Virus record (IMG/VR): IMGVR_UViG_3300000116_000011
Location: 1-55,095 of that record
Strand: one strand, 5' to 3'
DNA from: a virus
Length of the DNA: 55,095 bases
Positions within the stretch are counted from its first letter, which is position 1. Every line of letters begins with the position of its first letter. Under the pieces are notes generated by a model. The model had not been told where the DNA came from. It was given only the letters and a program-made list of their open reading frames with translations, and ran no database searches. The position numbers and the translations under genes were made by a program. Of this stretch, positions 6,626 to 21,163 are shown one piece after another.

Positions 6626-7314
6626 AATATGTAAACATGGGTCAGTCTTGCAGCATGTTGTCCCAGATGAAACAACATATGGGATACAACGATGGTTCTC
6701 ATATTTTTGATTGGATGATAACAGACTTTACAGGAGTGATACAGACTTTTAAGAAAAAGGAATTTAGTGTAAGTGATTTTACAACAGAAAGAGTGTTTTT
6801 TAATGAGTATACTCGATGGCCTCTTAGACTTAGAAAAAACCCAGTTTCTCCTCCCGAAAATAATGAGGACAGGGGCTGGGAGCAAAATAAGCTTTTAGTA
6901 GAATGTAATTCCTTTCCTTTTGTATCAGTACATTATATAGAAAAAAATAAAGATCGAGATGAGGAAATGAATAAATTTGTGGACATGATCAACAGAAGAC
7001 TTGAACGAATTAAAAAATATATTCTACATGAAAATGAAATAACTTTCATGTATTATGTAACCGATATGTTTTTAAGTCCATTCGCTCCAAACCAAAGTGA
7101 CATAGATTGCTTTGATGAAGTTTTGAGATCAATAAACCCACATGTTAACTATAAACTTGTGGTATTTATATCTGAACAAGATCTAGAACATTTAAAAATA
7201 AAACCTACTAAAGAATATCGTATATTAAAAAAGATTGATAATTCTGCCATGAGATCTGATTGGAGGGACGGCCATTTAGACTGGGGTTATTTTTTGAAAA
7301 ATGGTAAACCATAA
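6622..7314 (+). CDS. DUF1796-like (putative papain-like cysteine peptidase) protein
   Basis: The N-terminus MGQSCSMLSQMKQHMGYNDG followed by HIFDWMI matches the pattern G-x-x-C-x(n)-L-x(n)-FDW of the DUF1796 family, annotated as putative papain-like cysteine peptidase and often found in glycan clusters; real activity is not established. The Cys in GQSC is the candidate nucleophile, and HLDW near the end could supply a His. Starts inside the RmlB stop (ATGA) and overlaps the following sulfotransferase gene by 14 nt, so the three form one operon. Confidence 0.5.
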   Translation: MKYVNMGQSCSMLSQMKQHMGYNDGSHIFDWMITDFTGVIQTFKKKEFSVSDFTTERVFFNEYTRWPLRLRKNPVSPPENNEDRGWEQNKLLVECNSFPFVSVHYIEKNKDRDEEMNKFVDMINRRLERIKKYILHENEITFMYYVTDMFLSPFAPNQSDIDCFDEVLRSINPHVNYKLVVFISEQDLEHLKIKPTKEYRILKKIDNSAMRSDWRDGHLDWGYFLKNGKP

Positions 7315-7906
7315 AAAAAAATTTATTTTTGTTCATATACCAAAATGCGGAGGAAGTTCGATAGAAACATTTCTTGGATTTAATTTATGGTCAAAATTAA
7401 TAATTGAGGAGGATCGTGAAGATATTTTTATAGGGCGAGATTCAAAAACAGGAAAATGTTTACAACACTCTACTATATCTGAAATTTATTATAAATTTTA
7501 TATTCGTAAAAAAATTAATATAAGTAATTACTTTTCATTCTCATTCGTAAGGAACCCATATGACAAATGTATATCTAGTTATTTTTATACAAATCAATAT
7601 CAAAAAAAATCTTTTAAAGAATTCCTTTTAAAATATGAACACCACGACTCTTATCACAATATGAATCAATGTGATTTCGTCACCGACAAAAATGGTAAAA
7701 TTGCAGTAGATTTCATAGGAAGGTTTGAAAATCTTCAAGAAGATTTTGATCATGTATGTAAAAAAATAGGAGTTAAAACAGGGCAAATTCCCCATCAAAA
7801 CAAATCTCTCCACAATAACTACAGAGAGTATTATAATGAAGAAACGAAAGCTATTGTAGAAAAAAAATTTAAAAAAGATTTAGATTTATTTGAATACAAA
7901 TTCTAA
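7301..7906 (+). CDS. Sulfotransferase (PAPS-dependent, family 2-like)
   Basis: Transfers sulfate from PAPS to a carbohydrate acceptor in characterised relatives. The 5'-phosphosulfate loop is HIPKCGGSS at residues 12-20; the 3'-phosphate motif is FVRNPYDKCISSYFY around RNP 84-86. DFIGRFENLQEDF (near 148) and the ending YREYYNEETKAIVEKKF...DLDLFEYKF match the shared C-terminal pattern of the other sulfotransferases here. Its TAA directly abuts the TAA of the minus-strand gene, with no base between. Confidence 0.88.
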   Translation: MVNHKKKFIFVHIPKCGGSSIETFLGFNLWSKLIIEEDREDIFIGRDSKTGKCLQHSTISEIYYKFYIRKKINISNYFSFSFVRNPYDKCISSYFYTNQYQKKSFKEFLLKYEHHDSYHNMNQCDFVTDKNGKIAVDFIGRFENLQEDFDHVCKKIGVKTGQIPHQNKSLHNNYREYYNEETKAIVEKKFKKDLDLFEYKF

Positions 7907-8557
7907 TTAGTTTTTCCTATTAATTATTCTCTTAATTGAGCGTTTATTTATATCGTTGTTTGGGACCACAAACAAATACGGCCCTGGGATTATAGATTCA
8001 CGTTCTGCAGTTCTATACTGACTTTTGTGTAAATGTTTAGCTCTTATTTGATAAGCTGGATTTGTAACCATCATACCAGATTTACTAGCCAGGTAAGATA
8101 TCCTGTTATCACAACCCAGGATACCCATCCTGAAGTTTGCACTCTCAATTTTAACGGGGCTTTTAAATACCCAAACATCTTGAGAGTAGTGTCCACCGAC
8201 TACTGAATCAGAGTCGTCTCGACGACTCAGCGCGAGGAACTTGTTTTTCATATTGTCTTGATTTAAAACACCTAGTGTATTATCGAATATTATATCAGAA
8301 TTGGATATTATACATATTTGGTCGGGATATGTTTTATTACAAAAATAAAATAAATTCTGAAATGTAGGTCTTACGGACACTATATTGTAATTAATTTTAC
8401 TCGATTCGATAGGAGGCTTTGTGTCGGCTTCAATAAAAATTTCAATTTTTGAAATGTATTGATTTTTTATATTTTTTTTCAAACATTCTAAATATTCATC
8501 GTGCCTAGCCTTATTTTGAGGTACGTGGTATTCTATTAATAATATCAGATTATTCAT
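7907..8557 (-). CDS. Glycosyltransferase-like protein
   Basis: A Rossmann-like start (NLILLIEYHVP) leads to IISNSDIIFD near residue 83-92, where Asn-Ser-Asp resembles the DxD metal/nucleotide-sugar site of GT-A enzymes. Later SQDVWVFKSPVKI and FRMGILGCDNRISYL resemble the acceptor-side region of small viral and bacterial glycosyltransferases. The acceptor and sugar are unknown. Last gene of the minus-strand cluster, converging on the + strand sulfotransferase. Confidence 0.5.
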   Translation of the reverse strand: MNNLILLIEYHVPQNKARHDEYLECLKKNIKNQYISKIEIFIEADTKPPIESSKINYNIVSVRPTFQNLFYFCNKTYPDQICIISNSDIIFDNTLGVLNQDNMKNKFLALSRRDDSDSVVGGHYSQDVWVFKSPVKIESANFRMGILGCDNRISYLASKSGMMVTNPAYQIRAKHLHKSQYRTAERESIIPGPYLFVVPNNDINKRSIKRIINRKN

Positions 8558-8560
8558 AAT

Positions 8561-9220
8561 TCATTTCTCTAAAATTATTCTCATTAGAACGGGGTTGTCA
8601 TCTTTATAGATAGATAAATTGTCTTGTTCATTGAAATACTTAAGCTTGAAGCCCAATGTTAATACTTTCTTTAAAAATTGTTGTGAATCTATGAATCTAC
8701 GAGTGTGTCCATCATTAAAATATGATGTGTCACATATATGCTTACCAACTCCGAATTTTGGGTCCTTGGTTGTGCGAGCTTCAATACAAAATAACCCCTC
8801 TTCTCTTAGACATTGAAACACCTTTGTTAATAATTTGTTTTCATCTTGTAAAGTGATTGAGTGAATAGTGAATCGAGAATAAAACACGTCGATTGGCAAT
8901 AAGTCTGGGTGATATTCATTTGTTTCTATGTCATCTCGGTGATAAGATGGTCGCACAAAATCATCTTCCAGAAACTGTAATCTGTAATGGTTCTTGCTTT
9001 CTTTAATCGAAATATCTATAGATTGATCCACACCCAAAACTTCATGCCCCAACCGAGCAAAATAGAATGCATCTCTAGCATTCCCGCAACCTAGGTCCAC
9101 GATGGAAAGTTCTCGTTTAAAATAGTTTTCTTCACAAAATTTAGCAAAAGTACTGCATTCGGATATATCCTCTTTAAGCGAGTGGTCTTCGTAAAAATTT
9201 TTCCAGTATTGTTTGTCCAT
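8561..9220 (-). CDS. SAM-dependent methyltransferase (class I)
   Basis: The SAM-binding motif I, DLGCGNARDAFYFA, is at about residues 42-55, followed by HEVLGVDQS (motif II acidic residue). FYSRFTIHSI fits motif IV and LREEGLFCIEARTT motif V-VI. The fold resembles TPMT/UbiE-like small-molecule or sugar methyltransferases. Its start overlaps the stop of the LicD-like gene by one base. A role in O-methylating a surface sugar is inferred from context only. Confidence 0.8.
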   Translation of the reverse strand: MDKQYWKNFYEDHSLKEDISECSTFAKFCEENYFKRELSIVDLGCGNARDAFYFARLGHEVLGVDQSIDISIKESKNHYRLQFLEDDFVRPSYHRDDIETNEYHPDLLPIDVFYSRFTIHSITLQDENKLLTKVFQCLREEGLFCIEARTTKDPKFGVGKHICDTSYFNDGHTRRFIDSQQFLKKVLTLGFKLKYFNEQDNLSIYKDDNPVLMRIILEK

Positions 9221-9837
9221 TATCGTTTTCTGTGTCGAATATGTGCATGTTTGTCTTTTATTGGTACACGCCAGTCACTACCATAAAGTTTCTGAAAATA
9301 ACCTTCTGGATCATTTACACAAGTTAAATTTCTATTATGAAAGGTGATTGTATTACTATTATCAAAATCCATTTCTGTTAAGGTTCCAAAATAAGGGATG
9401 CAATGTAATACATTTGAGTTTTTTTCTTTTGTTCTATACATATAAAGATCTATAAAATCGCCTCCACGAGTAAATGACAAAATATTTTTGGTAAACCTTG
9501 TTAACATTAGTTGGCTGTCTTCTAAATTTTTGATAAATTCAATAATTTTATTTTCGTCTTGAAGCCACACAGCTAAATCGCTGTCTGTATCATGCTCAAT
9601 CAATTCACCATCTCTGTAAATTCCTAATAAAGTTCCAAATACAACAGAATATTTAATGTTGAGGTTTTCTAGAACATCAACTGTAGTAAATAGATTAGCT
9701 GTTGATTGAGGAATGTTAATTCTTGGCCATAGTTTACTTGGGGTCGAGAAAGGATTGTAATGGTGATTTGAGAAATTATTTTTTTTACCAGCAACGTGTG
9801 GATAGTTTTTGCGTAAGTACTGAAGTAATTTTTTCAT
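9220..9837 (-). CDS. LicD-family nucleotidyltransferase-fold protein
   Basis: VVFGTLLGIYRDGELIEHDTDSDLAV (about residues 65-90) is the LicD/fukutin-type signature: a G-T-x-L-G-x-x-R region followed by H-D-x-D-x-D. FIDLYMY supplies the second acidic site, and YGSDWRVP near the end is the usual LicD terminal motif. Family members transfer phosphocholine, phospho-sugars or ribitol phosphate to glycans. This protein could add a phospho-substituent to the glycan made by its neighbours. Confidence 0.75.
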   Translation of the reverse strand: MKKLLQYLRKNYPHVAGKKNNFSNHHYNPFSTPSKLWPRINIPQSTANLFTTVDVLENLNIKYSVVFGTLLGIYRDGELIEHDTDSDLAVWLQDENKIIEFIKNLEDSQLMLTRFTKNILSFTRGGDFIDLYMYRTKEKNSNVLHCIPYFGTLTEMDFDNSNTITFHNRNLTCVNDPEGYFQKLYGSDWRVPIKDKHAHIRHRKR

Positions 9838-9877
9838 TTTCTAATATTTAATATTTCTGATATGTCGTTTACTATTT

Positions 9878-10423
9878 TTATTCGCCAAACTTGTATCCAA
9901 AATGCTCAATGTCTCTTGCGTATTTTTCCGCAACGATTTCACGAGTTTCATCATCGTAGTATTCGGTGTAGTGTTTGTGTGTGTTTTTTTTATGATGTGG
10001 AAGTTGTTGGTGTGGAATTCCAATTTTGTCGCAGACGATATTGAAGTCTTGTTGGAGGTTTTCAAAACGAATAATGAATAAATCTTTCGCTCCAGCGAAG
10101 AAATTTAAGTAATGATTCTCAGGTCTGGATAAGAGGAATCTTTTTAGGGGAATGCTGCGTTGTTGACTCCATTTCCACCAAGAAACCCAGCGATCCCAAG
10201 GGTTTCTGACCGTACCAAAAAGTATTGCATTTTCGAGTTTTTCAGCTCCAAGTATATCGAGATATTGAGAATATTTTAAATGGTGTTTGATATCTTTATG
10301 GTACCCAGTAATGAAAAATCCCTTGGAATTATTGAGTTGCGTGTATGGTAATAATGCTCGGGTTATTGAGCTGCTAGCCGTTTTTTGGGGTTTAATTAAT
10401 AAAAAGTCTTTATGTTTGTTCAT
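9878..10423 (-). CDS. Sulfotransferase-like protein
   Basis: IKPQKTASSSI at residues 10-20 is the PAPS 5'-loop with Thr-Ala in place of the usual Gly-Gly; FGTVRNPWDRWVSWW around RNP 73-75 is the 3'-phosphate motif. IIRFENLQQDF and the ending HYTEYYDDETREIVAEKYAR...FGYKFG match the protein at 11161 closely. The last ~90 bases are one of three related copies in this region. The start overlaps the SGNH-like gene stop (ATGA). Confidence 0.82.
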   Translation of the reverse strand: MNKHKDFLLIKPQKTASSSITRALLPYTQLNNSKGFFITGYHKDIKHHLKYSQYLDILGAEKLENAILFGTVRNPWDRWVSWWKWSQQRSIPLKRFLLSRPENHYLNFFAGAKDLFIIRFENLQQDFNIVCDKIGIPHQQLPHHKKNTHKHYTEYYDDETREIVAEKYARDIEHFGYKFGE

Positions 10424-11157
10424 AATTTATTCTCCAAATTTGTACCCAAAATTCTCAATGTCTCGTGGTTTCGTCGTCGTAGTATTCGGTGTAGTGTTTG
10501 TGATATAATTCCACCAATATATTCTGATGCAATATCTTCACCTTTTCTGGTATAATGTTCCCGATTTTTAGTAGTTTGTAGATTGGGCATTATGGAGGGG
10601 TCAATCAAGAAAACATTTTTGTACTCTGTGGAAATTTTCTTTAAATAATCCCAAATTACTTCCCTGTAAGGTTTGCTTTTTCGATCAAAGTGGCTAACAA
10701 AAAATATTGGCTTTTCACTATACTCTACAAAATTCTTTGTTGTTACCTCAAATTCTTCAGATGACATATCTTTAATTATGGAAGAATTCTTATTATTGTG
10801 CATTATGTTGTGAATCAATTTATTATCTTTGTTTTTATAATACCTAAGTGAAGAAACCTCCACGACAATAGCATCAATTTGATTAAACTTTCGCCCTAAA
10901 AAAAGTAAGTTATCTTTAATATTTTCAATATCTGGATACTCACAGCCAGCATATTCAGCAAACGGCTTATCACCTTTGATTAATTTTAGCAGTTCTAATT
11001 GCTCGTTGATACTCCAACTTCTACCAATTATGCATTTTGGGTTTAAATGTCTACTCCCTGTCTCCCCCCATGTGTTGTATGTATTTTGATAATTATTTAA
11101 AGCAGCGCAAATTCGACAGCTACCCATAGCTAGTAAATTATATTTACTGTTGTTCAT
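10420..11157 (-). CDS. SGNH-hydrolase-like protein with an aberrant C-terminal tail
   Basis: LLAMGSCRICAAL near residues 8-20 resembles the GxS nucleophile block of SGNH/GSCFA-type proteins, and HYTRKGEDIASEY (about 201-213) resembles the D-x-x-H block with its C-terminal helix. Deacetylase or acyltransferase roles on glycans are typical of such proteins; here it is inference. The final ~25 residues (HETLRILGTNLENKL end) are not native: they are translated, in the wrong frame, from a decayed sulfotransferase 3' end. Confidence 0.45.
   Translation of the reverse strand: MNNSKYNLLAMGSCRICAALNNYQNTYNTWGETGSRHLNPKCIIGRSWSINEQLELLKLIKGDKPFAEYAGCEYPDIENIKDNLLFLGRKFNQIDAIVVEVSSLRYYKNKDNKLIHNIMHNNKNSSIIKDMSSEEFEVTTKNFVEYSEKPIFFVSHFDRKSKPYREVIWDYLKKISTEYKNVFLIDPSIMPNLQTTKNREHYTRKGEDIASEYIGGIISQTLHRILRRRNHETLRILGTNLENKL
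10427..10502 (-). pseudogene. Remnant of a sulfotransferase 3' end
   Basis: On the minus strand these bases encode, in a different frame from the overlapping gene, HYTEYYDDET and then, after a shift, RDIENFGYKFGE. That is the C-terminus of the sulfotransferases at 9878 and 11161. Compared with the 11161 copy, 26 bases are missing between two CTCG repeats, which shifts the frame. A 33-nt block is identical to the 11161 copy, so the event looks recent. Confidence 0.75.
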
Positions 11158-11160
11158 ATT

Positions 11161-11739
11161 TTATTTTCCGAATTTATAACCAAAATACTCAATGTCTCGT
11201 GCGTACTTTTGTGCCACAATCTCGAGGGTTTCGTCGTCGTAGTATTCGGTGTAGTGTTTTTTGTTTTTGTCTCGCATTTGAATTTTTCGCTGATGAATTT
11301 TACTGTTAATAGTTGCACCAATTTTCTGTGATATGTATTGTAGATCATTTTCACGATTTTCGAAACGACCAATAAAATCTATTTGTTCTGGATCGAAATA
11401 ATCGTGGAAAGTTTCACCTTTTTCATGCGATGGATTTTTATAATGTTTAAGAAAATATTTCAGAGATTTGCCTGCTCGTTCTCCAATTGGTCCTCCTGGA
11501 TGTTTGCTTGTGAACCAAATATCCTTGTATTTTGATATCATAAAATCCCAAGGATTTCTAACAAAACTAAACTTAAAATATTCATCAAAAATCTCAGGAT
11601 CTAATGTTTTTTTCCAGTTATTTAAAGTCCAGTGTTTGTTTTTTTCTTTGTTTTCTTTGTAGTTGAATTGCGATTCAATGCTGGAACCTCCCGTGCGAGG
11701 GATGTGTATGAATAAGAATTTGTGTTTGTGGTTTATCAT
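11161..11739 (-). CDS. Sulfotransferase (PAPS-dependent)
   Basis: FIHIPRTGGSSIE at residues 10-22 is the 5'-PAPS loop and FVRNPWDFMISKY around RNP 61-63 the 3'-phosphate site. DFIGRFENRENDL and the ending KHYTEYYDDETLEIVAQKYA...FGYKFGK are shared with the neighbours. The frame extends upstream to 11832, but ATG at 11739 makes the usual ATGA overlap with the upstream stop and starts MINHKHKFLFIHIP, as in the homologues. Confidence 0.88.
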   Translation of the reverse strand: MINHKHKFLFIHIPRTGGSSIESQFNYKENKEKNKHWTLNNWKKTLDPEIFDEYFKFSFVRNPWDFMISKYKDIWFTSKHPGGPIGERAGKSLKYFLKHYKNPSHEKGETFHDYFDPEQIDFIGRFENRENDLQYISQKIGATINSKIHQRKIQMRDKNKKHYTEYYDDETLEIVAQKYARDIEYFGYKFGK

Positions 11740-12431: not shown

Positions 12432-12432
12432 A

Positions 12433-13191
12433 TTATAAATTATGAGAAAGAAGAAAGTCTTGATACTTTTTAACCATTGGAAAATCATTTTCAAAAATTT
12501 CGATTTCTTCGGTTGAGAACTTCTTCTTCCACTCATTAATATCAGTAGTACGTTTGTGGATTTTTAGACCTTTTTTAATAATTTCGTCAGTTCGATCTCT
12601 AATAGGTCTGAACGATTTATTATGTTTCTCGTAAATAGATTGGTGTAAAGAAGGTAAGTTTATATGATTTAAAAATAGATGTAAAAATTGAGAGAAGTTT
12701 GAGATCATTAATTCATATGGAAGAATAAGTTTATTTTGAAATTCGTTGTCATCAAAAACCTTGTTTAAATTTTTACACAAACCATTCATTCTACGACCAG
12801 CAAATTTATTTAAGCCAATTTTTCGTATTAAAAGTTGTTTCTCGAGATGATCTTTTTCGCTAAATCCAGAATCAAGCGGAGAATGAGTATAGGCAAAAGA
12901 ATAAAACATGGAAATAGCAATAGATAAAGGATTTCGTACAACAAAAATAAATTTATCGTTCCCTGAATAAGGTGGAAGCCAATCTAGCCTTTTGACCATA
13001 TCGATATCAACGGCAACATCTTTATCGGATAAAGTTAAGCTTATCGGAGTAAAGATCCTAGGCTTTACTAAAGTTCTATCTTGAGAGATAAAAGATGCAG
13101 AATTAGAAAGAATACGTTCTATTATAGTAGACCCGCATTTATGAAAACACACTAAATTATATTTACTGGAGGATTTAGTTGGTGAATGCAT
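12433..13191 (-). CDS. Sulfotransferase-like protein
   Basis: LVCFHKCGSTIIERIL near residues 13-28 is a PAPS 5'-loop with His-Lys-Cys-Gly-Ser-Thr; FIFVVRNPLSIAISMFYS around RNP 86-88 is the 3'-phosphate motif. PYELMISNFSQFL corresponds to the 'YE-x-L' segment, and the end (EWKKKFSTEEIEIFENDF) matches classical sulfotransferases with W-K-x-x-F-T-x-E. It is more divergent from the HYTEYYDDET group and may have a separate origin. Confidence 0.8.
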   Translation of the reverse strand: MHSPTKSSSKYNLVCFHKCGSTIIERILSNSASFISQDRTLVKPRIFTPISLTLSDKDVAVDIDMVKRLDWLPPYSGNDKFIFVVRNPLSIAISMFYSFAYTHSPLDSGFSEKDHLEKQLLIRKIGLNKFAGRRMNGLCKNLNKVFDDNEFQNKLILPYELMISNFSQFLHLFLNHINLPSLHQSIYEKHNKSFRPIRDRTDEIIKKGLKIHKRTTDINEWKKKFSTEEIEIFENDFPMVKKYQDFLLSHNL

Positions 13192-13204
13192 AGTTAATAT
13201 TATA

Positions 13205-13990
13205 TTAATCTAAAGAGGTAAACTCAGTATTATTTACACATTGATTTTCCAAGTATCGATAAATATTACTGCTTTTTGTACCTATAAATTGTTTAGCGTT
13301 TTTAGAAATTTCGATTGGGCTTAAAAATTTTAATAAATCATTTTCTGTATAAATTTTATTGTTATCAAGATCCTTATCGGTTGAATGCCCCTGATCTTCA
13401 GGATTAGTTAAGGTAACAATACGGCGCTTGATATTGTTTTTGCGCAAATACTCTTTGCCTTCGAGAATACATTTGTAGTCGTCTGTAAAAATAAATATTG
13501 TCTCTACAGAATTATTGATTTTATTGAAATAGTGTTCAAACTCAAATCTTTTAGATTCTGCTCTACCTCTGCTCTCAGCCCATCTATAAAGTGCTTCACC
13601 AACTTTGTCTCCTCTTCGAATATGTAAACAATTATATTGTTCGTTCAAAGAAAGTTTTTTGATTTTTGAATTTAATTTATTCTGAAAGTTGTCGGTATAT
13701 GAAAAGAAGCTAGAACATGTTTGTTGGTCGATTGAAAATTTATAATGTTTTCTTGAAGCTTTTCTCCACGGTCTTGGGGGAACTAACCGCGATCCATCAA
13801 TGGGTTCACTAACGAAGAAATCTGGAAACTTAAAAACATCATATATAGATACTTTTTTAAAATATTGAGATTTGCTTGCGTCTATAAAAACTTTACAGTC
13901 TTCGCGTATCACACTCTCGTAAAAGCCTAATAAGGAATTAAGTTCTGCACATAACCCGCGTCTGGTTAATTGATATATATATTTTTTCAC
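13205..13990 (-). CDS. Fucosyltransferase-like protein (HxRRGDK motif)
   Basis: CLHIRRGDKVGEA at residues 121-133 is the GDP-fucose-binding motif of alpha-1,2/alpha-1,6 and protein O-fucosyltransferases (GT11/23/65 type). IFIFTDDYKCILEGKEYL is the usual following strand ('TDD'), and KQFIGTKSSNIYRYLE near residue 238-251 is the conserved G-T-x-x-S-N block. About 260 residues, a compact form. Predicts fucosylation, or a related GDP-sugar transfer, within the cluster's glycan. Confidence 0.72.
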   Translation of the reverse strand: MKKYIYQLTRRGLCAELNSLLGFYESVIREDCKVFIDASKSQYFKKVSIYDVFKFPDFFVSEPIDGSRLVPPRPWRKASRKHYKFSIDQQTCSSFFSYTDNFQNKLNSKIKKLSLNEQYNCLHIRRGDKVGEALYRWAESRGRAESKRFEFEHYFNKINNSVETIFIFTDDYKCILEGKEYLRKNNIKRRIVTLTNPEDQGHSTDKDLDNNKIYTENDLLKFLSPIEISKNAKQFIGTKSSNIYRYLENQCVNNTEFTSLD

Positions 13991-13993
13991 GTA

Positions 13994-15001
13994 TCAAATT
14001 TTAGAATCTAGACCTTTTAGCTTAAGAAACTCATCACAAATTAATTTATTGTCAATTTTTGAGACATCAAAATCATTTTTATAAATTTCAATGCATTTAG
14101 CTAATCTAAATTCATCCCAAGGGAAATTAGAAGGAGTATCTCTAAAAAAAGTTTCAAACAAATGAATACAATTTTTTTTCATTTCTAAAACCTTTTCTTT
14201 GTCTGATAATACTTCAAGTATTTTTGCTTGAATTTCCTTGACAGTTTGTTTGCTTAAGTCAAATAAAAGCATATAATCCTCTACATTTTCCATAATATTC
14301 TCCCATCCGATATTCATTGCATTAACACATATTGGTATACATCCACATTGTATAACGTCAAAAAAACTATGAGTTGATGGTCTATCGCCCCGAAGAACAA
14401 AAGACATATCTGAATTAGATAATTCTTTTAGGTAATTATCATGCTCGCTTGCGGGGCATGGTTCTACATAAATACGATGTTTAAATTCTTCTATGCAAAA
14501 ATTAGGATTAGGTTTTTTTTGAAAAAAATCAAAAATTTTCTTACGAGTGCGATGATTACCAACATTGCCTTTCCAGTAGACTCTATTGTAATAGCTCACT
14601 CGATCAACCCTATCTTTTAGTCTCCAGTAAAGCGGGGGCTTAGATATAGTTCTTGCTATATTCCAGTCCACAGGAACATGAATAAGATATGGGTTTTTGC
14701 AAAAATCATTACGAGTAAAACAAAAATTCTTAGCCTCAGGCACTTCTATTTTATCATCGACACAAAAGCCTGATCGACAGCCCTTCCTCCTGTAAAGACC
14801 TTTGTTATTAGCAGCGATATATTTCATGCGGTATATTGCTCTTGAGTTTTCTTTAAATACGGGCGAGTCTGAGTTCCAGTCGGACGGAAGAATCATTAAG
14901 TCGGCATTTTTTTTCTCTTTTACAAATTCAATATCAGGGTATTTAGCTTTAGTACAGATAAAACCTGTTCTACTTAAATAATTGTCTACATAAATCTTCA
15001 T
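13994..15001 (-). CDS. Exostosin-like (GT47-type) glycosyltransferase
   Basis: The C-terminal half has YLKELSNSDMSFVLRGDRPST, then FFDVIQCGCIPICV (about residues 190-226), the exostosin signature for UDP-sugar binding. The N-terminal half (VEPCPASEH and earlier) corresponds to the rest of the GT-B fold. Eukaryotic GT47 enzymes build heparan sulfate or add arabinose/galactose to plant cell-wall polymers. The stop overlaps the next start. Confidence 0.78.
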   Translation of the reverse strand: MKIYVDNYLSRTGFICTKAKYPDIEFVKEKKNADLMILPSDWNSDSPVFKENSRAIYRMKYIAANNKGLYRRKGCRSGFCVDDKIEVPEAKNFCFTRNDFCKNPYLIHVPVDWNIARTISKPPLYWRLKDRVDRVSYYNRVYWKGNVGNHRTRKKIFDFFQKKPNPNFCIEEFKHRIYVEPCPASEHDNYLKELSNSDMSFVLRGDRPSTHSFFDVIQCGCIPICVNAMNIGWENIMENVEDYMLLFDLSKQTVKEIQAKILEVLSDKEKVLEMKKNCIHLFETFFRDTPSNFPWDEFRLAKCIEIYKNDFDVSKIDNKLICDEFLKLKGLDSKI

Positions 15002-15693
15002 TTTAAATAATTATAATTTTTGTAATCAATAGAAAGTTTTTTTGTTAAAATATCAGGGTATATAAATTCGCTGCGAGCAACTTCTTTATGTTTACCTAAT
15101 TTAGCATTTATTCCACTAATAAATAAAGCTTCAGACCAAAGATAATGGTCTTTTTTTGAAAAAGGAATTGAGTTTAGATATTGATTTCTTGCCCACCAAA
15201 AATTTCCAGAATAATGCCATGTATTCGAGACTCCAAAGGGTTGGCCGTTAGTGTTAGCTTTATTGCACCCACACGTGTCATATTCTTTCAATAAATTTAA
15301 ACACAACTGATAACTCTCGATGAGATGATATTCCATAAAATCAACCCAAGCATCTATACACTCTTTTTTTTGAGATAAAGATCCTTTTGACCATTTATTA
15401 GTAGCACCTTTAGAGTGAAGATACAAAGTGTTGCCCGATGAATTTTTAGAAGCTAAATCTTTAGCCAGATTAACGGTTGTAACTTCACTTTTATCGTATT
15501 CATTTTGATGAACTCTAACTTTTGTTAAGCACGATATTTTGTCACTCCATTCTTTTTTATAAAGCCCAACGCAATTAACATGCAATGAATTTATGGCTCT
15601 TAATAGATTACTGTTTTTAATTTTGTTGTATGTTTTATAAAAACGGTCCAGACCGTCATTTTTGCAAAATAGATGGTAAACAACGGTATTCAT
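14998..15693 (-). CDS. Viral/bacterial glycosyltransferase-like protein (HYSGNFWWA type)
   Basis: TLYLHSKGATNKW near residues 89-101, followed by a helical region and TWHYSGNFWWARNQYL (about 158-173), is a pattern I recall from glycosyltransferase-like proteins of phages, giant viruses and bacterial glycan clusters. WSEALFISG near 186-194 would provide the late acidic residue. Sugar specificity cannot be told. Overlaps its upstream neighbour by ATGA. Confidence 0.62.
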   Translation of the reverse strand: MNTVVYHLFCKNDGLDRFYKTYNKIKNSNLLRAINSLHVNCVGLYKKEWSDKISCLTKVRVHQNEYDKSEVTTVNLAKDLASKNSSGNTLYLHSKGATNKWSKGSLSQKKECIDAWVDFMEYHLIESYQLCLNLLKEYDTCGCNKANTNGQPFGVSNTWHYSGNFWWARNQYLNSIPFSKKDHYLWSEALFISGINAKLGKHKEVARSEFIYPDILTKKLSIDYKNYNYLK

Positions 15694-15694
15694 T

Positions 15695-16381
15695 TTAGGT
15701 ATTAATTAATTCATATATTGTCTCCATAGTCTCAGGGAGAACGTAGTGTGTTGTGATTTTATTTTTTTTAATTATTTCATCAATGCAGACTGATTGATTT
15801 TCTTTTACTACAGCAGGGGGAGGCCCCCAGCTTAGGGAAAATGTGGGTGTTAAATTTATTTCTTGCTCTTTTAAGGCGAGACCAACATAATAATCTTCCG
15901 CAGCCTGTTTTATGCCATATATTCCTTCAATTTTAGATCTATTTCTATAAAAATGTTTCAATGACTCAATACACTTTTTAACTGCACTTCTTGTCAAAAC
16001 ATATCCCGCTCCACCTTGAGCATACCCTTTTTGTCCTAGCTGCTTCCCTATGTACAAATCTTGAGATGGATCATAAGTTTTTAAAAATTCAATTAATCTA
16101 TCAAAGCAAACATAGGTATCGTCGTCGCATTTAAACAAAAAATCCCATTCATAATCTAATGATTTTACTAGCATTTTATATGTTTTTTCTGTTAATCCAT
16201 TCCTGCATTCCCCTTTATCTGGTTCACAATTCCATGTTTTAGGCATTTTCTCTGATTGAGTTTTGTTTCCGTAAAAAAAATAATCATGTGGTGATTTTAT
16301 GTCTTTAATCCATGTCGCAAGACAAGCATCGGCCCGTGTTTGAGTTGATGAGCAGGTTAATATTGCTACAAGTATTTTCAT
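15695..16381 (-). CDS. GT31-like galactosyltransferase (fringe/beta-1,3 type)
   Basis: FLFKCDDDTYVCFDRLIEFL (residues 81-100) is the GT31 DDD metal site with the typical 'K-x-DDD-x-Y-V' context. YAQGGAGYVLTRSAV (120-134) and AAEDYYVGLAL (160-170) are the other two diagnostic blocks (G-G-A-G-x-x-L-S and E-D-V). In plants GT31 enzymes galactosylate hydroxyproline; in animals they extend O-glycans. It sits beside a prolyl 4-hydroxylase gene, which makes hydroxyproline a plausible acceptor. Confidence 0.85.
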   Translation of the reverse strand: MKILVAILTCSSTQTRADACLATWIKDIKSPHDYFFYGNKTQSEKMPKTWNCEPDKGECRNGLTEKTYKMLVKSLDYEWDFLFKCDDDTYVCFDRLIEFLKTYDPSQDLYIGKQLGQKGYAQGGAGYVLTRSAVKKCIESLKHFYRNRSKIEGIYGIKQAAEDYYVGLALKEQEINLTPTFSLSWGPPPAVVKENQSVCIDEIIKKNKITTHYVLPETMETIYELINT

Positions 16382-16420
16382 TGCCCTGCCTTTGGGACAT
16401 GTATGAATAATGGTTTTTTT

Positions 16421-17506
16421 TTACTCACTATCTCTGGGAGTAGAAATAGTTCTTGGACCGTAAGCATTAATAACTTCTCGGTCTTCGCTAGCTTCCCTAA
16501 TCCATATAGTTAATATATATTTTAATCCTTTTTTTATCGTTGTTCCTTCATGATGACTAGACTCTAATGGGAATCCATTTTCATCTATATTTTTCCAGAA
16601 AACTGCCGTGCCAATTTTTGGTTTAATTTTTAAAATTTTACCTTTTTCGTCTTTCACATTCCAGAATTTAGTAGACCCTCCCTTTTTAGGTTCATTTAAA
16701 TACACCATAAAAGAATATACCCTATTACCTCCTTCTTCTGGAGAAGCAAATTCTTGACCTCCACGCTCTCTAGTATCCCAGCCATCAAAATGACAATAAA
16801 AGTAATCACCTTTAGAGTATTTTTGCATTTGAATGCCTTCGCACCTATCTGGATGAACGCCTAACGCAAGACATGCTTTGTTCTCTATAGACATTAGAAA
16901 AAGCATCTCATCTTTACTGAAATTTAAATTAGGCTGTCTTGTTATGAATGCAGTTTCGGACCTTCGATCATCTTCATCAATAACATTACCCTCTCCATAA
17001 GCAGTTACTGGAGATGGTTCTAAATGACGCTCTCCTAAAGTTATCGCATCTTTGCATTGAGCTTCCGTCATAAAATTATCAATCATAAAAATATCAAGAG
17101 CATCATCTTGAACTTGAATCTTCTTAGCAAATCTAGTAAAAAAAGGATAACCTTTAATGCCATTTAAATTTCCTGGATCTCTATACAAATTTTCTTTTTT
17201 AGATTTTTTAGATTTTTTCATTTTATTTTTAGAATTAGAATTTACAGAGTTATCTTTAGTTTCCACTTTTGAGGCTGGATTTTCTTCGGGTTTTTGTTTT
17301 TTAGAATCAGGTAATCTTTTGTGAGCTTCTCGAATGATCTCAACACACTCCTGTTGAGTCAAATCAAAACTTTTTAAAGTTTGAAGAACATATGAGGAAG
17401 GAGCTTTCGTCTCTATATTTTCTACGGTCCAATCAATCAAGTCGCATTTTTTCCAGTTAGCGCAGCCCTGCGGAGGGCATCCATTTTTAGAGCATTTATT
17501 TTCCAT
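16421..17506 (-). CDS. Prolyl 4-hydroxylase-like 2OG-Fe(II) dioxygenase
   Basis: The C-terminal ~240 residues form a P4H catalytic domain: HFD (His239, Asp241) in QKYSKGDYFYCHFDGWD, distal His319 in HEGTTIKKGLKY, and Lys329 for 2-oxoglutarate, with the exact P4H spacing H-x-G-x(5)-G-x-K. FMVYLNEPKKGGSTKFW is the usual strand. The N-terminus has four cysteines (5, 10, 15, 21) in C-x4-C-x4-C-x5-C, then a Lys/Asn/Ser-rich linker around 70-105. Target may be a proline-containing phage or host protein. Confidence 0.88.
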   Translation of the reverse strand: MENKCSKNGCPPQGCANWKKCDLIDWTVENIETKAPSSYVLQTLKSFDLTQQECVEIIREAHKRLPDSKKQKPEENPASKVETKDNSVNSNSKNKMKKSKKSKKENLYRDPGNLNGIKGYPFFTRFAKKIQVQDDALDIFMIDNFMTEAQCKDAITLGERHLEPSPVTAYGEGNVIDEDDRRSETAFITRQPNLNFSKDEMLFLMSIENKACLALGVHPDRCEGIQMQKYSKGDYFYCHFDGWDTRERGGQEFASPEEGGNRVYSFMVYLNEPKKGGSTKFWNVKDEKGKILKIKPKIGTAVFWKNIDENGFPLESSHHEGTTIKKGLKYILTIWIREASEDREVINAYGPRTISTPRDSE

Positions 17507-17537
17507 TTATATATAATAAGTTATTTTGTTAAAATTG

Positions 17538-18140
17538 TCAAATAAATTGAGAAAAAGAATAGTGAACAAAAAAGTTTTTGAAAGAATTACCTTTAAACTT
17601 AAATAGTCTTCCGTGTAAGCATTTAGCCGATTCATAAAAAACCATTTCACCTATATTAGCATAAACTTTCCTCCACTTTCCGTCATTTCCTTTTATATCA
17701 AAATGCCAATCTTCATTATTATTTGAACCTAAATCTTTATCTACGATTATTATTGAAGAAACATGGTGAGTTGCAAGATGATCGTAATGAGGCTTACAAA
17801 TAGCTCCTTTTTTATATACCCTGATTCCATAACAATTGTTGGAACTTAAGGGGTTTTTAGATCCAGCCCATTTTTGATGAATTCCTCCTAAAGAATTTAA
17901 AACATCAAACTCAAGCTTGTAAAAATTCTCAATATCATTAGTTGATGCTATATAAGAAAGTTCATCTTGTGGGATTAAACCGTTATGCTGATCAATGGAG
18001 ACACGACCACACTTTTTGTAATAATCACTAATTATTTTCCAAACTTTTTTAGGTACTTTACGGACCTTAAAACCTTTTTTACTTATAGATGGAAGGATTT
18101 CTCTGCTAAGTTTGATTTGAGAATTTTTCGTAAAGTTCAT
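17538..18140 (-). CDS. 2OG-Fe(II) oxygenase (P4H-related family)
   Basis: Counting from the alternative ATG at 18170, IRVYKKGAICKPHYDHLATHHV places HYD at 128-130, and GEMVFYESAKCLHGRLFKF gives the distal His186, with FFVHY near the end. This 'PH-x-D ... VDKDL...EDW... GEMVFYES...HGR ... FVHY' layout recalls hydroxylase-like proteins of algae, viruses and phages. ATG at 18140 leaves a shorter overlap with the upstream oxygenase gene, so I prefer it. Two oxygenase genes overlap in tandem, suggesting joint function. Confidence 0.75.
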   Translation of the reverse strand: MNFTKNSQIKLSREILPSISKKGFKVRKVPKKVWKIISDYYKKCGRVSIDQHNGLIPQDELSYIASTNDIENFYKLEFDVLNSLGGIHQKWAGSKNPLSSNNCYGIRVYKKGAICKPHYDHLATHHVSSIIIVDKDLGSNNNEDWHFDIKGNDGKWRKVYANIGEMVFYESAKCLHGRLFKFKGNSFKNFFVHYSFSQFI

Positions 18141-18702
18141 ATATATGATCAGCTTTATGTGTTTCGTCAAACGATAAAAAACTTGCTAGTGTATATCTTA
18201 TTCCTCCTCTTGCTGCAATCACTTCATGCAAATACTCACTTGTACCAGGAAAGATAACAGTTTTTCCAGTTTCTGGTTTTATTCTCATTTTTTGGTTCGG
18301 TAGATTTAAAAATCCATCTGCAAAATTATCATTAAGAAATGTTACTGAACCAAATTGCCTCCAGAAGTAATCATGATGACCTCCGTCATTCGCTTGTCCA
18401 TCTGCATGCAATGGCATACCTAATCCATCTGGCCATTTTACTATATGAAGAGTGTCTGAGAAAGCTGGGTTTTTGGGGAAAATTTTTCCAATTGCTTCAA
18501 TTATTTGCAACCCATGCAATGTTAGCTCTCTTTGAATTTCTTCATCGTTTATAAGTTCTACTCCCAAAACTCTACCCTTCCAGTAATCTTCATCTTTATT
18601 ATGCATCCCGAAATCTGAATCATGATGATTCAAATAAGAAAGAAGCCTTGACTCTATTTTAACTAAGTTTGTGTTTTTAAAAATTATAGGGAATCCATTC
18701 AT
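18106..18702 (-). CDS. 2OG-Fe(II) oxygenase
   Basis: LHIVKWPDGLGMPLHADGQ gives the His99-x-Asp101 iron site; GKTVIFPGTSEYLHEVIAARGGIRYTLASF gives distal His159 and Arg169 for 2-oxoglutarate. This is the standard P4H/PKHD-type double-stranded beta-helix layout. ATG 18702 lies one base after the upstream stop. Third oxygenase in a row after the two at 16421 and 17538; substrate unknown, a protein side chain or the glycan. Confidence 0.82.
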   Translation of the reverse strand: MNGFPIIFKNTNLVKIESRLLSYLNHHDSDFGMHNKDEDYWKGRVLGVELINDEEIQRELTLHGLQIIEAIGKIFPKNPAFSDTLHIVKWPDGLGMPLHADGQANDGGHHDYFWRQFGSVTFLNDNFADGFLNLPNQKMRIKPETGKTVIFPGTSEYLHEVIAARGGIRYTLASFLSFDETHKADHIYELYEKFSNQT

Positions 18703-18703
18703 A

Positions 18704-21163
18704 TTAATATATTATTTCGTTGTAAAATTTTGTATTCCATTTTATATTTGCAGTAATAGCTCTGGAAAATTTTTGTTCAAGTTTACTTAATTTAGGGTTG
18801 CTATTTAAATTGCTTTTTTTGAAAATTTTAGGCGGAACTTCTAGACCATAACATTCAAAAAGAATTTGTCCGAGAGCTTCTTTCGCAAAGGATAGATCCC
18901 TGACATATATATTTTCTTCTATAAAAAAATCTACAACATCTTTCACATATTCTATATTATTTTTAATGCCAGATAAACTTTCATCATACAATGCCCTTAA
19001 GGGCCAAGCATCTTTTAACTTTTCTATTTGATTACCTGAAGAATAAAGTAATGAACTCATTTGAGCTCTTGGGTCTCTCAGGAAACTAAAGGGGGATAGC
19101 ATAACCCCAGAATCGTTGGCAATTTTTTTAACAAATTCATATGAAATTTTTGGGTATCCGCTTAGAGACGTACTTGCTGCAAAAATTAGAAACGATGAAT
19201 GATCAAAATATCTTAAAAAAGTTTTTTCTGAGCATTGAGCGAAGAAAGGGTTTTTTTTAGATCCTGAAACATCTGGATCGGAAAAGAAATTTTCTTCATA
19301 TACATAGCAATAAAATATAGCTATTGAGTTTTTATCTAAATTAACGTTAATTCTCCTGTAGGCTCTATTTGAAAGTTCTGGAGAATCATTAACGAAACTT
19401 TCAAAATAATAAGTAAATACACTATTAACAAAAGAGCCTCCACACTTAGGTTGGTGAATAAAAAATGGAACTTTTTCTTCTGCTATGTTTTTAACTAAGA
19501 TTTTATTATAAATCTCTAAATCTTGTTTGTATTTATTTTCAATTTGGATCTCTATGTCCTTATCCACTGACCCTTGGTAAAAGTTAATTTTATTAACTGT
19601 ATGATTGATGGGGATTGATTTCAATTCAACTCTGCCAGCATCTATCTTTTTATTTTTCTGAAAAATAGATTTTAAAACAGTTTCAATCAATCTAACATCA
19701 TAAAAAGAAAAATTCCATAAAATAGAATATAAAAAATCTAACTCCTTTGCATTCAACGATTCTTTCCCGATTAAATTTTTAGATAAAAAACCTTTGGGAG
19801 AATAGTTAACCAAGAAGTCGTGAAATTTTAATTTGAATTCTGGACTTCTTACAGAAATTCTATTAGCATTGGCATATGGAATGTAAAGAGAACTTGCAAT
19901 ATCCAAAGGGTTTTTAAGAAAGGAAAAAATAGAAGGGCTTAATTTTAATGAATAACATATCTGATGAAATTCCATAAAAAAGAGGTAATCATAGTCAGTT
20001 GAATATCTTTGATCTAATACTATAGAAAAAGGTTCAAGAAAATCTGACTCCGAAATTTTTTGGAAATCTTCCTGTGCAATACTATAAAAATTACCAACTT
20101 TAGATTGGAACATTTTTCTATCAAAAGGCTCGGGATTTTCCAGAGAGGATAGCAAATAAAAACGAGAATTTTTTTCAGTGGCAAAGCTTATTATGAACGG
20201 AAATCTTCCAGTTTTATTGCAGTGATTAATTAAATACTTTTCTTGAGCTTTTATGCAAAATTCTGAGCCAGATTTAGGCATTGCATAAAAAACCATAATT
20301 TCTTTAAAATTCTTGTTTTTATTGAAAAAATTTAAATTTAACTGTCTATATGGGCTCACTTCTTTTTGGTGAATAATCATGGCATTAGGATATGCCTTTA
20401 TCACACTTTTGGTAGTTATGAATTTATCTCTTGGGTCGCTTATATTTATAATAAAATCAGTATCAATAAGACTGTATTCTGATTTTTCTTTATTGTAATC
20501 ATTGATAGCTATGTCAAAATTATAGTAGCCTGTATCTGGCATATTTTTTTTGATGAATCTTTCAACATTCTTAGACAATTTTTTCATTTTCGGGCTGTTT
20601 TTATAAACGGCCACTCCATTTAGATGTTCTTTATAAAAAGAAAGGTAATGACTTTCGGTCATGCCCTTATATCTACTGCCAGCTATATCAAAATCGTGAG
20701 ATTCGGAAAAACTTAAAATCCTATCAAACCACAAATGCTGACAAGGAAAAGTATCAGACTCTAACATTAAATTATATTCATATCCCTCCTTAAACATTAA
20801 ATCGAGAGATCTAAAAAATAAATTATTGGCCCCAGCAGTATAGCCTAGTTTAGGCATTGAAAAAGGCTTTGGACTGCTAAGCCATGGATACCAAAAAGTA
20901 TCTTCTTCAAATGTTAAATTTAAATCTACTATTTTAACATCATTTATATTTATATGTTTTTTTATTGATTGGTGAAATTTTTCTATCCTCGTTGAAAGCA
21001 CTAATTTATTAAAATATATATATAAATCTATGGAGTAAGTTTGAGAAGGAAAACTGTTTAAATAATGGTATATTGATTGTTCTAATTCTCCGCTTGTAAA
21101 CTCTCTGATTGTTGCAACATAAAAAACACAAAGTTTTTCACATCTTTTTAATTTATTAATCAT
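18704..21163 (-). CDS. Three-domain fusion: glycosyltransferase + two sulfotransferases
   Basis: 819 residues. Residues 1-275 look like a GT-A glycosyltransferase (NLMLESDTFP at 131-140, FDIAGSRYKG at 158-167). Residues ~286-555 form a first sulfotransferase: 5'-loop YAMPKSGSEF (293-302) and 3'-site FLKNPLDIASSLY (415-427), ending ENKYKQDLEIYN. Residues ~560-819 form a second: IHQPKCGGSF (569-578) and FLRDPRAQMSSLL (694-706), ending LEQKFSRAITANI. Both sulfotransferase domains keep their motifs. First gene of the minus-strand operon, next to a divergent promoter. Confidence 0.75.
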   Translation of the reverse strand: MINKLKRCEKLCVFYVATIREFTSGELEQSIYHYLNSFPSQTYSIDLYIYFNKLVLSTRIEKFHQSIKKHININDVKIVDLNLTFEEDTFWYPWLSSPKPFSMPKLGYTAGANNLFFRSLDLMFKEGYEYNLMLESDTFPCQHLWFDRILSFSESHDFDIAGSRYKGMTESHYLSFYKEHLNGVAVYKNSPKMKKLSKNVERFIKKNMPDTGYYNFDIAINDYNKEKSEYSLIDTDFIINISDPRDKFITTKSVIKAYPNAMIIHQKEVSPYRQLNLNFFNKNKNFKEIMVFYAMPKSGSEFCIKAQEKYLINHCNKTGRFPFIISFATEKNSRFYLLSSLENPEPFDRKMFQSKVGNFYSIAQEDFQKISESDFLEPFSIVLDQRYSTDYDYLFFMEFHQICYSLKLSPSIFSFLKNPLDIASSLYIPYANANRISVRSPEFKLKFHDFLVNYSPKGFLSKNLIGKESLNAKELDFLYSILWNFSFYDVRLIETVLKSIFQKNKKIDAGRVELKSIPINHTVNKINFYQGSVDKDIEIQIENKYKQDLEIYNKILVKNIAEEKVPFFIHQPKCGGSFVNSVFTYYFESFVNDSPELSNRAYRRINVNLDKNSIAIFYCYVYEENFFSDPDVSGSKKNPFFAQCSEKTFLRYFDHSSFLIFAASTSLSGYPKISYEFVKKIANDSGVMLSPFSFLRDPRAQMSSLLYSSGNQIEKLKDAWPLRALYDESLSGIKNNIEYVKDVVDFFIEENIYVRDLSFAKEALGQILFECYGLEVPPKIFKKSNLNSNPKLSKLEQKFSRAITANIKWNTKFYNEIIY

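What the first reader, a model, noticed from the sequence alone, without database searches (positions are those of the whole stretch)
7301..21163. Phage gene cluster combining prolyl hydroxylase, GT31, GT47, fucosyltransferase-like and sulfotransferases
A prolyl 4-hydroxylase with intact H-x-D, His319 and Lys329 stands next to a GT31-like galactosyltransferase, an exostosin-like GT47, a fucosyltransferase-like HIRRGDK protein, LicD, a methyltransferase, two other 2OG oxygenases and several sulfotransferases. In plants P4H, GT31 and GT47 act in order on hydroxyproline; in animals exostosins and sulfotransferases make sulfated proteoglycans. I know of no described phage system that joins all of these. 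Inference: the phage builds a sulfated glycan on hydroxylated protein of its virion, or rebuilds host surface glycans.
Basis: partly seen in the sequence, partly recalled or inferred. Interest (0 to 1): 0.85.

Follow-up and report, generated by a model that had tools for sequence, protein, structure and literature searches.

The report
Phage hydroxylase and sulfated-glycan island
An uncultured phage from a widespread family carries a swappable block of sugar-building and sulfate-adding enzymes beside a proline-hydroxylating enzyme, and across phages this kind of enzyme tends to sit beside structural-module proteins with long proline-rich linkers, which suggests that phages hydroxylate (and perhaps sugar-coat) their own surface proteins.

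Summary
The minus-strand block 7907-21163 encodes a P4H with intact H239/D241/H319/K329, two more 2OG oxygenases, a Fringe-type GT31, a GT47/exostosin-like domain, LicD, a methyltransferase and sulfotransferases (9 genes in the window). The fucosyltransferase call is weak. The virus (80-kb IMG/VR record) belongs to an uncultured tailed-phage family (at least 599 TerL hits). Sulfotransferase clusters recur in relatives; the five sulfotransferase-carrying relatives of 146 kb or more also encode an APS-kinase-like protein.

The plant-type order P4H-GT31-GT47 is not supported: GT31 is Fringe/C1GalT-like, and in a 99.9%-identical strain GT31 and its neighbour are replaced by a sulfotransferase while P4H and GT47 stay.

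The main new result concerns the P4H substrate. Phage P4H genes sit beside ORFs with PPP/PTP linkers (12/14 P4H+ loci of one tail-marker lineage, 1/80 without P4H). The window virus has a 45-aa Cys-flanked polyproline stretch in a tail-region protein; its homologue in a P4H-less relative lacks it. Best reading: P4H hydroxylates phage surface-protein linkers, and a cassette-swapped glycan/sulfation island decorates probably the virion. The hydroxylation target rests on association; glycan placement is inference.

The parts
5693..6625 (+). Sugar-nucleotide 4,6-dehydratase (GDP_Man_Dehyd/Epimerase family; reads as dTDP-glucose type)
   Evidence: Pfam 3e-79; 84.5% identical copy in relative G005, which also has sulfotransferases
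7301..7906 (+). Sulfotransferase a
   Evidence: Sulfotransfer_2 4e-15; PAPS motifs IPKCGGSS and RNPYDKCISS
7907..8557 (-). Glycosyltransferase-like ORF (reading only)
   Evidence: No Pfam or PHROG match; weak similarity to a relative's ORF
8561..9220 (-). SAM methyltransferase
   Evidence: Methyltransf_31 3e-9; 80% identical copy beside LicD and GT47 homologues in L129
9220..9837 (-). LicD-family protein (phosphocholine-transferase type)
   Evidence: LicD 3e-7; 55% homologue in L129
9878..10423 (-). Sulfotransferase b
   Evidence: Sulfotransfer_2 7.5e-10; motifs
10420..11157 (-). Unknown ORF of the island
   Evidence: No family above cut-off
11161..11739 (-). Sulfotransferase c (start corrected from 11832)
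   Evidence: Sulfotransfer_2 3e-15; start at Met32, as in strain L124
11736..12431 (-). Glycosyltransferase-like ORF (reading only; start corrected from 12536); a GDSL-like gene is inserted downstream of it in strain L124
   Evidence: No Pfam match; insertion
12433..13191 (-). Sulfotransferase d
   Evidence: Sulfotransfer_1 4e-5; 40% homologue in L129; motifs
13205..13990 (-). Weakly FUT8-like protein (HIRRGDK motif)
   Evidence: FUT8_N_cat 21 bits, below cut-off; predicted structure unusable
13994..15001 (-). GT47/exostosin-like glycosyltransferase
   Evidence: Exostosin_GT47 34.6 bits vs cut-off 33.4; 40-43% homologues in three other phage contigs; exostosin matches in 10 of 16 records
14998..15693 (-). 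Glycosyltransferase-like ORF (reading only), part of the swapped cassette
   Evidence: No Pfam match; absent in strain L124
15695..16381 (-). Fringe/C1GalT-type GT31, part of the swapped cassette
   Evidence: Fringe 4e-17; nearest solved structures B3GLCT-type and C1GalT1; 71% and 52% homologues in G001 and G002
16421..17506 (-). Prolyl 4-hydroxylase, catalytic domain about residues 140-340
   Evidence: 2OG-FeII_Oxy_3 9e-14; PDB P4Hs; H239/D241/H319/K329
17538..18140 (-). 2OG oxygenase b, fused to P4H in other phages (start corrected from 18170)
   Evidence: 42-44% to the C-terminal half of the L125/L126 P4H fusion; 29% to a 2OG oxygenase of cyanophage S-SCSM1
18106..18702 (-). 2OG oxygenase c
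   Evidence: 2OG-FeII_Oxy_3 at its cut-off; H99-x-D101
18704..21163 (-). 819-aa protein: GT-like N-terminus (reading) plus two sulfotransferase-like motif pairs
   Evidence: No Pfam match; motifs at residues 296/417 and 572/696; homologues in five relatives
28851..29465 (+). Sulfotransferase e, in the structural module next to TerL
   Evidence: Sulfotransfer_2 1.4e-13
29471..30346 (+). Sulfotransferase-like f
   Evidence: No Pfam match; motifs VPKNAGT and REPYARARS; homologues in five relatives
31280..31936 (+). Sulfotransferase g
   Evidence: Sulfotransfer_2 1.4e-5, 25.8 bits over the cut-off of 22
31946..32536 (+). Sulfotransferase h
   Evidence: Sulfotransfer_2 2e-9

Best explanation
This is a decoration island of a large uncultured tailed phage with two activities. 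(1) The P4H, probably together with 2OG oxygenase b, hydroxylates proline-rich linkers in the phage's own tail-region surface proteins; in this virus the candidate substrate is the CSVPPPSPPPPVPPPTPPP...PPPPPC stretch of the protein at record position 74446-76173, outside the window. (2) The glycosyltransferases, LicD, methyltransferase and many PAPS-using sulfotransferases make sulfated, otherwise modified glycans, most likely on virion proteins, possibly but not necessarily on such linkers. Cassettes of GT, sulfotransferase and acylhydrolase-like genes are exchanged between nearly identical strains, so surface chemistry can change quickly, affecting adsorption or recognition. Shown here: gene content, intact motifs, cassette swap, recurrence in relatives, and the P4H/Pro-rich gene association. 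Inferred: enzyme activities, the hydroxylation substrate, placement of the glycan on the virion, and the benefit.
For: P4H residues and PDB relatives. P4H and 2OG-b domains are fused in unrelated phages, directly downstream of an ORF with TPP/SPP linkers and in a gene run with two virion structural PHROGs. Among 80 phage P4H loci, Pro-rich ORFs are 24/413 within three genes of P4H, 3/335 farther away, and 11/1632 in loci fetched for other genes. Lineage control: 12/14 P4H+ loci with a given tail marker have a Pro-rich ORF, against 1/80 marker loci without P4H. Own virus: a 45-aa polyproline stretch in a tail-region protein, absent from the homologue in G003, which lacks PF13640. Sulfotransferase matches in 9 of 23 relatives, an APS-kinase-like gene in the five sulfotransferase-carrying relatives of 146 kb or more and in G009. 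Cassette swap between 99.9%-identical strains.
Against: No biochemical or mass-spectrometric data. Most P4H-like loci fetched (65 of 80) show no nearby Pro-rich ORF by this measure, so other substrates must exist; many of these are of the more distant T4-like type. Pro-rich P4H loci are partly related: 13 of the 17 non-window loci form one group, so the tests overstate independence, and controls differ phylogenetically from cases. The window polyproline gene is about 57 kb from P4H. The APS-kinase half covers only part of its profile. Nothing places the glycan on the virion rather than the host.
Confidence: 0.45

Rival explanations
1. Host-surface remodelling: the GTs, LicD, methyltransferase and sulfotransferases modify the host's envelope polysaccharide during infection (serotype conversion or superinfection exclusion), and P4H is a separate function.
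For: LicD, sugar-nucleotide dehydratase and GTs are typical of surface polysaccharide loci (general knowledge); rapid cassette exchange also fits envelope variation; P4H is absent from the 23 relatives that have the rest of the repertoire in part.
Against: No flippase, polymerase or lipid-linked initiating GT was recognised among the island ORFs; a terminase search of 84,980 species found only four, taxonomically discordant MAG contigs, so no sign of lysogeny in which conversion would pay; sulfotransferases also sit inside the structural module.
Confidence: 0.27
2. One reading: P4H makes hydroxyproline, GT31 adds the first sugar and GT47 extends it.
For: All three genes are adjacent, the P4H is intact and a polyproline protein exists.
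Against: GT31 is Fringe/C1GalT-like; GT31 is replaced by a sulfotransferase in a 99.9%-identical strain that keeps P4H and GT47; GT31 occurs in G001 and G002 without PF13640, and GT47 homologues occur in three contigs without P4H detected in the loci held.
Confidence: 0.06
3. DNA modification: the 2OG oxygenases hydroxylate a DNA base and the GTs glycosylate it, as in phages with glycosylated hydroxymethyl bases.
For: Oxygenase plus GT pairs make hypermodified DNA in some biological systems (general knowledge); some PHROGs of this fold carry nucleic-acid annotations.
Against: Best solved relatives are prolyl 4-hydroxylases with the P4H-type lysine; sulfotransferases have no known role in DNA modification; the Pro-rich association is left unexplained.
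Confidence: 0.04
4. Unconnected auxiliary genes: P4H, GTs and sulfotransferases act on unrelated host metabolites or proteins and share an island only because it is a hotspot for cargo genes.
For: Strain-level swapping; P4H is rare in the family; the gene mix varies between relatives.
Against: GT47, LicD, methyltransferase and sulfotransferase d travel together in L129; P4H and 2OG-b are fused elsewhere; sulfotransferases recur with an APS-kinase-like gene.
Confidence: 0.18

Closest known systems
Kyanoviridae (T4-like cyanophage) 2OG-oxygenase and sugar clusters, e.g. Synechococcus phage S-SCSM1 (MK867354, about 100-114 kb)
   Same: Several 2OG oxygenases beside an annotated protein O-fucosyltransferase, sugar-nucleotide enzymes, carbamoyl- and glycosyltransferases; its 2OG oxygenase is homologous to window 2OG b (29%, 1e-20)
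   Different: No sulfotransferase, GT31 or GT47 is annotated in the stretch viewed; the window's FUT-like protein is not detectably related to its O-fucosyltransferase
Chlorovirus PBCV-1 prolyl 4-hydroxylase (Eriksson 1999, as cited in PMC9301287)
   Same: A virus-encoded P4H with viral Pro-rich proteins as proposed substrates
   Different: Eukaryotic algal virus; substrate shown by biochemistry there, only by genomic association here
Phage sulfotransferases of OM43 phages and cyanophage S-SRM01 (PMC10580990)
   Same: Phage-encoded sulfotransferase-family proteins; that paper calls their function in phage genomes unclear
   Different: Sulfotransfer_3 genes in two genomes there; here up to nine Sulfotransfer_2 matches per record
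Plant hydroxyproline O-glycosylation (P4H, GT31, GT47)
   Same: The three enzyme superfamilies are present
   Different: GT31 is Fringe/C1GalT-like, and GT31 is swapped out while P4H and GT47 stay
Animal heparan or chondroitin sulfate synthesis (exostosins, sulfotransferases)
   Same: An exostosin-type domain and sulfotransferases together
   Different: Only a C-terminal exostosin-type domain at threshold; PDB exostosins match at E 0.06; no polymerase pair recognised

Membership tests
Prolyl 4-hydroxylase (P4H) | H-x-D...H iron triad and 2OG-binding Lys ten residues after the distal His | tested here: met
   H239, D241, H319, K329; conserved in the alignment of seven phage P4Hs
Prolyl 4-hydroxylase (P4H) | Sequence similarity to characterised P4Hs over the catalytic domain | tested here: met
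   5c5t 6e-10, Chlamydomonas P4H 2jig 6e-9
Prolyl 4-hydroxylase (P4H) | Hydroxylates peptidyl proline | not testable with these tools
   Only a genomic association with Pro-rich ORFs
GT31 (Fringe/C1GalT type) | Fringe domain over cut-off with acidic metal-binding motif | tested here: met
   62.9 bits vs cut-off 21; CDDDTYV in the sequence
GT31 of plant hydroxyproline-galactosyltransferase type | Galactosyl_T (PF01762) as the best domain | tested here: not met
   Fringe 4e-17 against Galactosyl_T 7e-5; nearest structures B3GLCT and C1GalT1
GT47 exostosin | Exostosin_GT47 domain over the curated cut-off | tested here: met
   34.6 vs 33.4 bits, positions 176-257 of 293 only; homologue in L129 34.5 bits
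GT47 exostosin | GT-B fold | tested here: inconclusive
   Model pLDDT 41
Fucosyltransferase (FUT8-like) | FUT8_N_cat over the curated cut-off | tested here: not met
   21 bits vs 27.6; structure model unusable
PAPS sulfotransferase | 5'-phosphosulfate loop and 3'-phosphate motif | tested here: met
   Present in all nine genes, degenerate in places in 18704-21163
APS kinase (protein of relatives) | Complete APS_kinase domain | tested here: inconclusive
   47.8 bits over cut-off, but profile positions 5-90 of 152 only; second half weakly nucleotidyltransferase-like
Plant-like P4H-GT31-GT47 pathway | The three enzymes maintained together | tested here: not met
   GT31 replaced in strain L124 while P4H and GT47 are kept

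The most novel reading that the evidence does not exclude
Tailed phages make hydroxyproline-containing, sulfated glycoproteins: a phage P4H (in some phages fused to a second 2OG oxygenase) hydroxylates polyproline linkers of virion surface proteins, and a strain-variable GT/sulfotransferase island, fed by a phage PAPS-forming kinase, hangs sulfated glycans on the particle that resemble the polysaccharides which sulfatase-rich bacterial hosts bind and digest.
Probability: 0.15. Interest if true: 0.9.

Novelty: new variant of a known kind. Interest (0 to 1): 0.62.

Why it matters
[quoted passage not shown] The association of phage P4H with Pro-rich structural-module proteins names specific candidate substrate peptides, so the first question can be tested with one purified enzyme and one peptide. 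If true, the 'auxiliary metabolic gene' label for some of these oxygenases would be misleading, because they would modify the phage's own particle.

Tried and rejected
Megablast of the structural region against cultured phages: no match. GT31 and GT47 protein searches against cultured phages: no match. Predicted structures of the FUT-like (pLDDT 43.5) and GT47-like (41.2) proteins were unusable, so no fold search was run. Window FUT-like protein against the S-SCSM1 O-fucosyltransferase: not significant. Collagen-like G-X-Y repeats as P4H substrate: a scan of ORFs of this record and relatives reported none. PF13640 in 23 relatives: none, so P4H is not a family core gene. Host: terminase hits fell in four MAG contigs of discordant taxonomy (Halobacteriovorax, Flavobacteriaceae, Verrucomicrobiales, unnamed), so they are probably mis-binned; a DUF1501 gene of relatives is 50% identical to Verrucomicrobiota proteins and at most 36% in the other phylum sampled, which is suggestive only. 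One marker-lineage locus without P4H (L238) has a Pro-rich ORF; its locus ends 6.6 kb downstream, so a P4H there could be cut off. One control locus (L277) has a marginal P4H hit at 7e-4, not counted. Literature searches found no description of this combination in the library held. A motif script read the wrong record and was redone; two Pfam calls failed on bad coordinates.
Full report
What is there. The window is bases 1-55095 of an 80,288-base linear virus record. It is a tailed phage: PhoH at 22120-22830, TerL at 26986-28854 (PHROG large terminase), a tape measure from 44630 (PhageMin_Tail 1.9e-26) and, beyond the window, genes that read as a lambda-like tail tip with a 3214-aa gpJ-like protein and fibre-like genes (role by position and reading). 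The minus-strand island runs from 21163 down to 7907, with plus-strand genes at 5693-7906 that include a sugar-nucleotide dehydratase and a sulfotransferase. Pfam confirms a P4H-type 2OG oxygenase, a Fringe/GT31 protein, an Exostosin_GT47 domain (just over its cut-off, C-terminal part), LicD, a methyltransferase and four sulfotransferases. The FUT8-like match is below its cut-off. Three ORFs (7907, 11736, 14998) read as glycosyltransferase-like but match no family. Five more genes with sulfotransferase-type motifs (18704 with two motif pairs; 28851, 29471, 31280, 31946) bring the window to nine.

A phage family rich in sulfotransferases. Of 23 records searched, 9 have Sulfotransfer_2 matches (8 over the cut-off), up to nine in G001 and in G009; none has PF13640. 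Two of those records, G001 and G002, were reached through GT31 rather than TerL. Exostosin matches occur in 10 of 16 records. Fringe-type GT31 occurs in this virus and in G001 and G002, there too among sulfotransferases. An APS-kinase-like protein of about 270 aa, whose second half is weakly nucleotidyltransferase-like, is present in the sulfotransferase-carrying records of 146 kb or more (G001, G002, G003, G005, G024) and in the 52-kb G009; G006 (126 kb) has sulfotransferases without it. It could supply PAPS, but its kinase half covers only part of the APS-kinase profile and a role in nucleotide metabolism is possible. It was not found in the 80 kb held of the window virus.

Strain-level cassette exchange. 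Contig IMGVR_UViG_3300007539_010204 (loci L008, L124, L127) is 99.9% identical to the window over 11.1 kb up to base 16379, the start of GT31. From there to 15014 the window carries GT31 and a GT-like gene; the other strain has a sulfotransferase instead (PF03567 4e-15), and identity resumes at 98.5%. A second difference, a weakly GDSL-like ORF, is inserted at window 11741-11746. P4H, both other 2OG genes, the GT47-like and FUT-like genes and sulfotransferase d are kept. So GT31 is expendable relative to P4H and GT47, which argues against a fixed plant-like pathway and for a variable surface chemistry.

What P4H may act on. In unrelated phage contigs L125 and L126 the P4H domain (35% identical) is fused to a homologue of window 2OG oxygenase b (42-44%), which links two neighbouring genes of the window. 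Directly upstream lies an ORF with long TPP/SPP linkers (PPTPPPTPPTPPPTPPTPPPSPPTPTPTPS), in a run of genes that includes two virion structural PHROGs. Among the 80 fetched, Pro-rich ORFs (at least 12 P in 30 aa; FFPP repeats excluded) lie within three genes of P4H in 15 loci: 24 of 413 near ORFs, 3 of 335 far ORFs, and 11 of 1632 ORFs in loci fetched for other genes, most of those 11 being charged KPEP-type repeats. As a lineage control, 80 loci were fetched with a tail-gene marker of the L125 lineage irrespective of P4H: none has a confident P4H and 1 has a Pro-rich ORF, against 12 of 14 P4H+ loci bearing the marker. The P4H HMM recovers all 80 P4H loci. By two or more shared flanking proteins, the Pro-rich P4H loci fall into five groups counting the window virus; with one shared protein most merge, so the number of independent lineages is uncertain and the Fisher p-values (2e-12 for the lineage test) overstate the evidence. 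The window virus fits the pattern at a distance: among its ORFs the one matching stretch in a plausible gene is CSVPPPSPPPPVPPPTPPPNVPPPNVPPPAPPPPNPPPNPPPPPC in a 575-aa protein at record 74446-76173, in the fibre region. The homologue in G003, where no PF13640 match was found, aligns to the body of the protein and ends before the polyproline. The association does not prove hydroxylation, and most of the more distant P4H loci do not show it.

Glycan placement. No result here separates virion from host-surface glycans. I favour the virion because no sign of lysogeny was found, sulfotransferases also sit inside the structural module, and P4H associates with structural-module ORFs. A possible ecological setting: DUF1501 proteins of relatives are closest to Verrucomicrobiota of the two phyla sampled, and the four Verrucomicrobiota genomes with the best matches carry 21 to 103 sulfatase matches. 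Virions wearing sulfated glycans could resemble such hosts' food; this is speculation and the host is not established.

Verdict. The cluster is a new variant of known phage 2OG/GT clusters (Kyanoviridae) with an unusual load of sulfotransferases. The result of most value is the association of phage P4H with Pro-rich structural-module ORFs, a testable proposal for a question that the literature calls cryptic (PMC9301287).

Noticed in passing
G000:C1:74446-76173 (L004:4447-6174, minus strand; outside the window): 575-aa tail-region protein with a 45-aa Cys-flanked polyproline stretch; its homologue in G003 lacks it. Candidate P4H substrate.
   Followed up: yes
G001:23230-24033, G002:98165-98974, G009:43130-43957, L129:4855-5682: APS-kinase-like protein with a second, weakly nucleotidyltransferase-like half, recurrent in sulfotransferase-rich relatives; possible PAPS or NAD role.
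   Followed up: partly
G006:118690-119991, G002:99808-101088, L129:311-1612: DUF1501 gene in relatives, up to 50% identical to Verrucomicrobiota proteins; a weak host clue and an unexplained phage gene.
   Followed up: partly
L195-L221 (distant, T4-like P4H loci): An ORF with FFPPFFPPFFPF repeats lies 6-8 genes upstream of P4H in many of these loci; a different Pro-rich repeat whose meaning was not examined.
   Followed up: no
G008:30062-31285, G003:15249-16457, G009:41901-43109: Relatives without P4H encode a roughly 400-aa protein with a charged KPEPKPDP (or PEEPKPEE) linker before a hydrophobic, membrane-like segment.
   Followed up: no
window 44630-55093: The tape measure protein carries seven copies of a (V/I)PN(F/Y)(A/V) motif spaced along its first half.
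   Followed up: no
L137 and L138 (Salmonella phage Sen-NF, Erwinia phage Y3): A P4H-like oxygenase gene lies next to (Sen-NF) or one small ORF from (Y3) a gene annotated asparagine synthase, a different and unexplained pairing.
   Followed up: no
PHROGs phrog_2954 and phrog_3531: Families labelled 'ferrochelatase' match the 2OG oxygenase b domain; the label looks like a misannotation.
   Followed up: no
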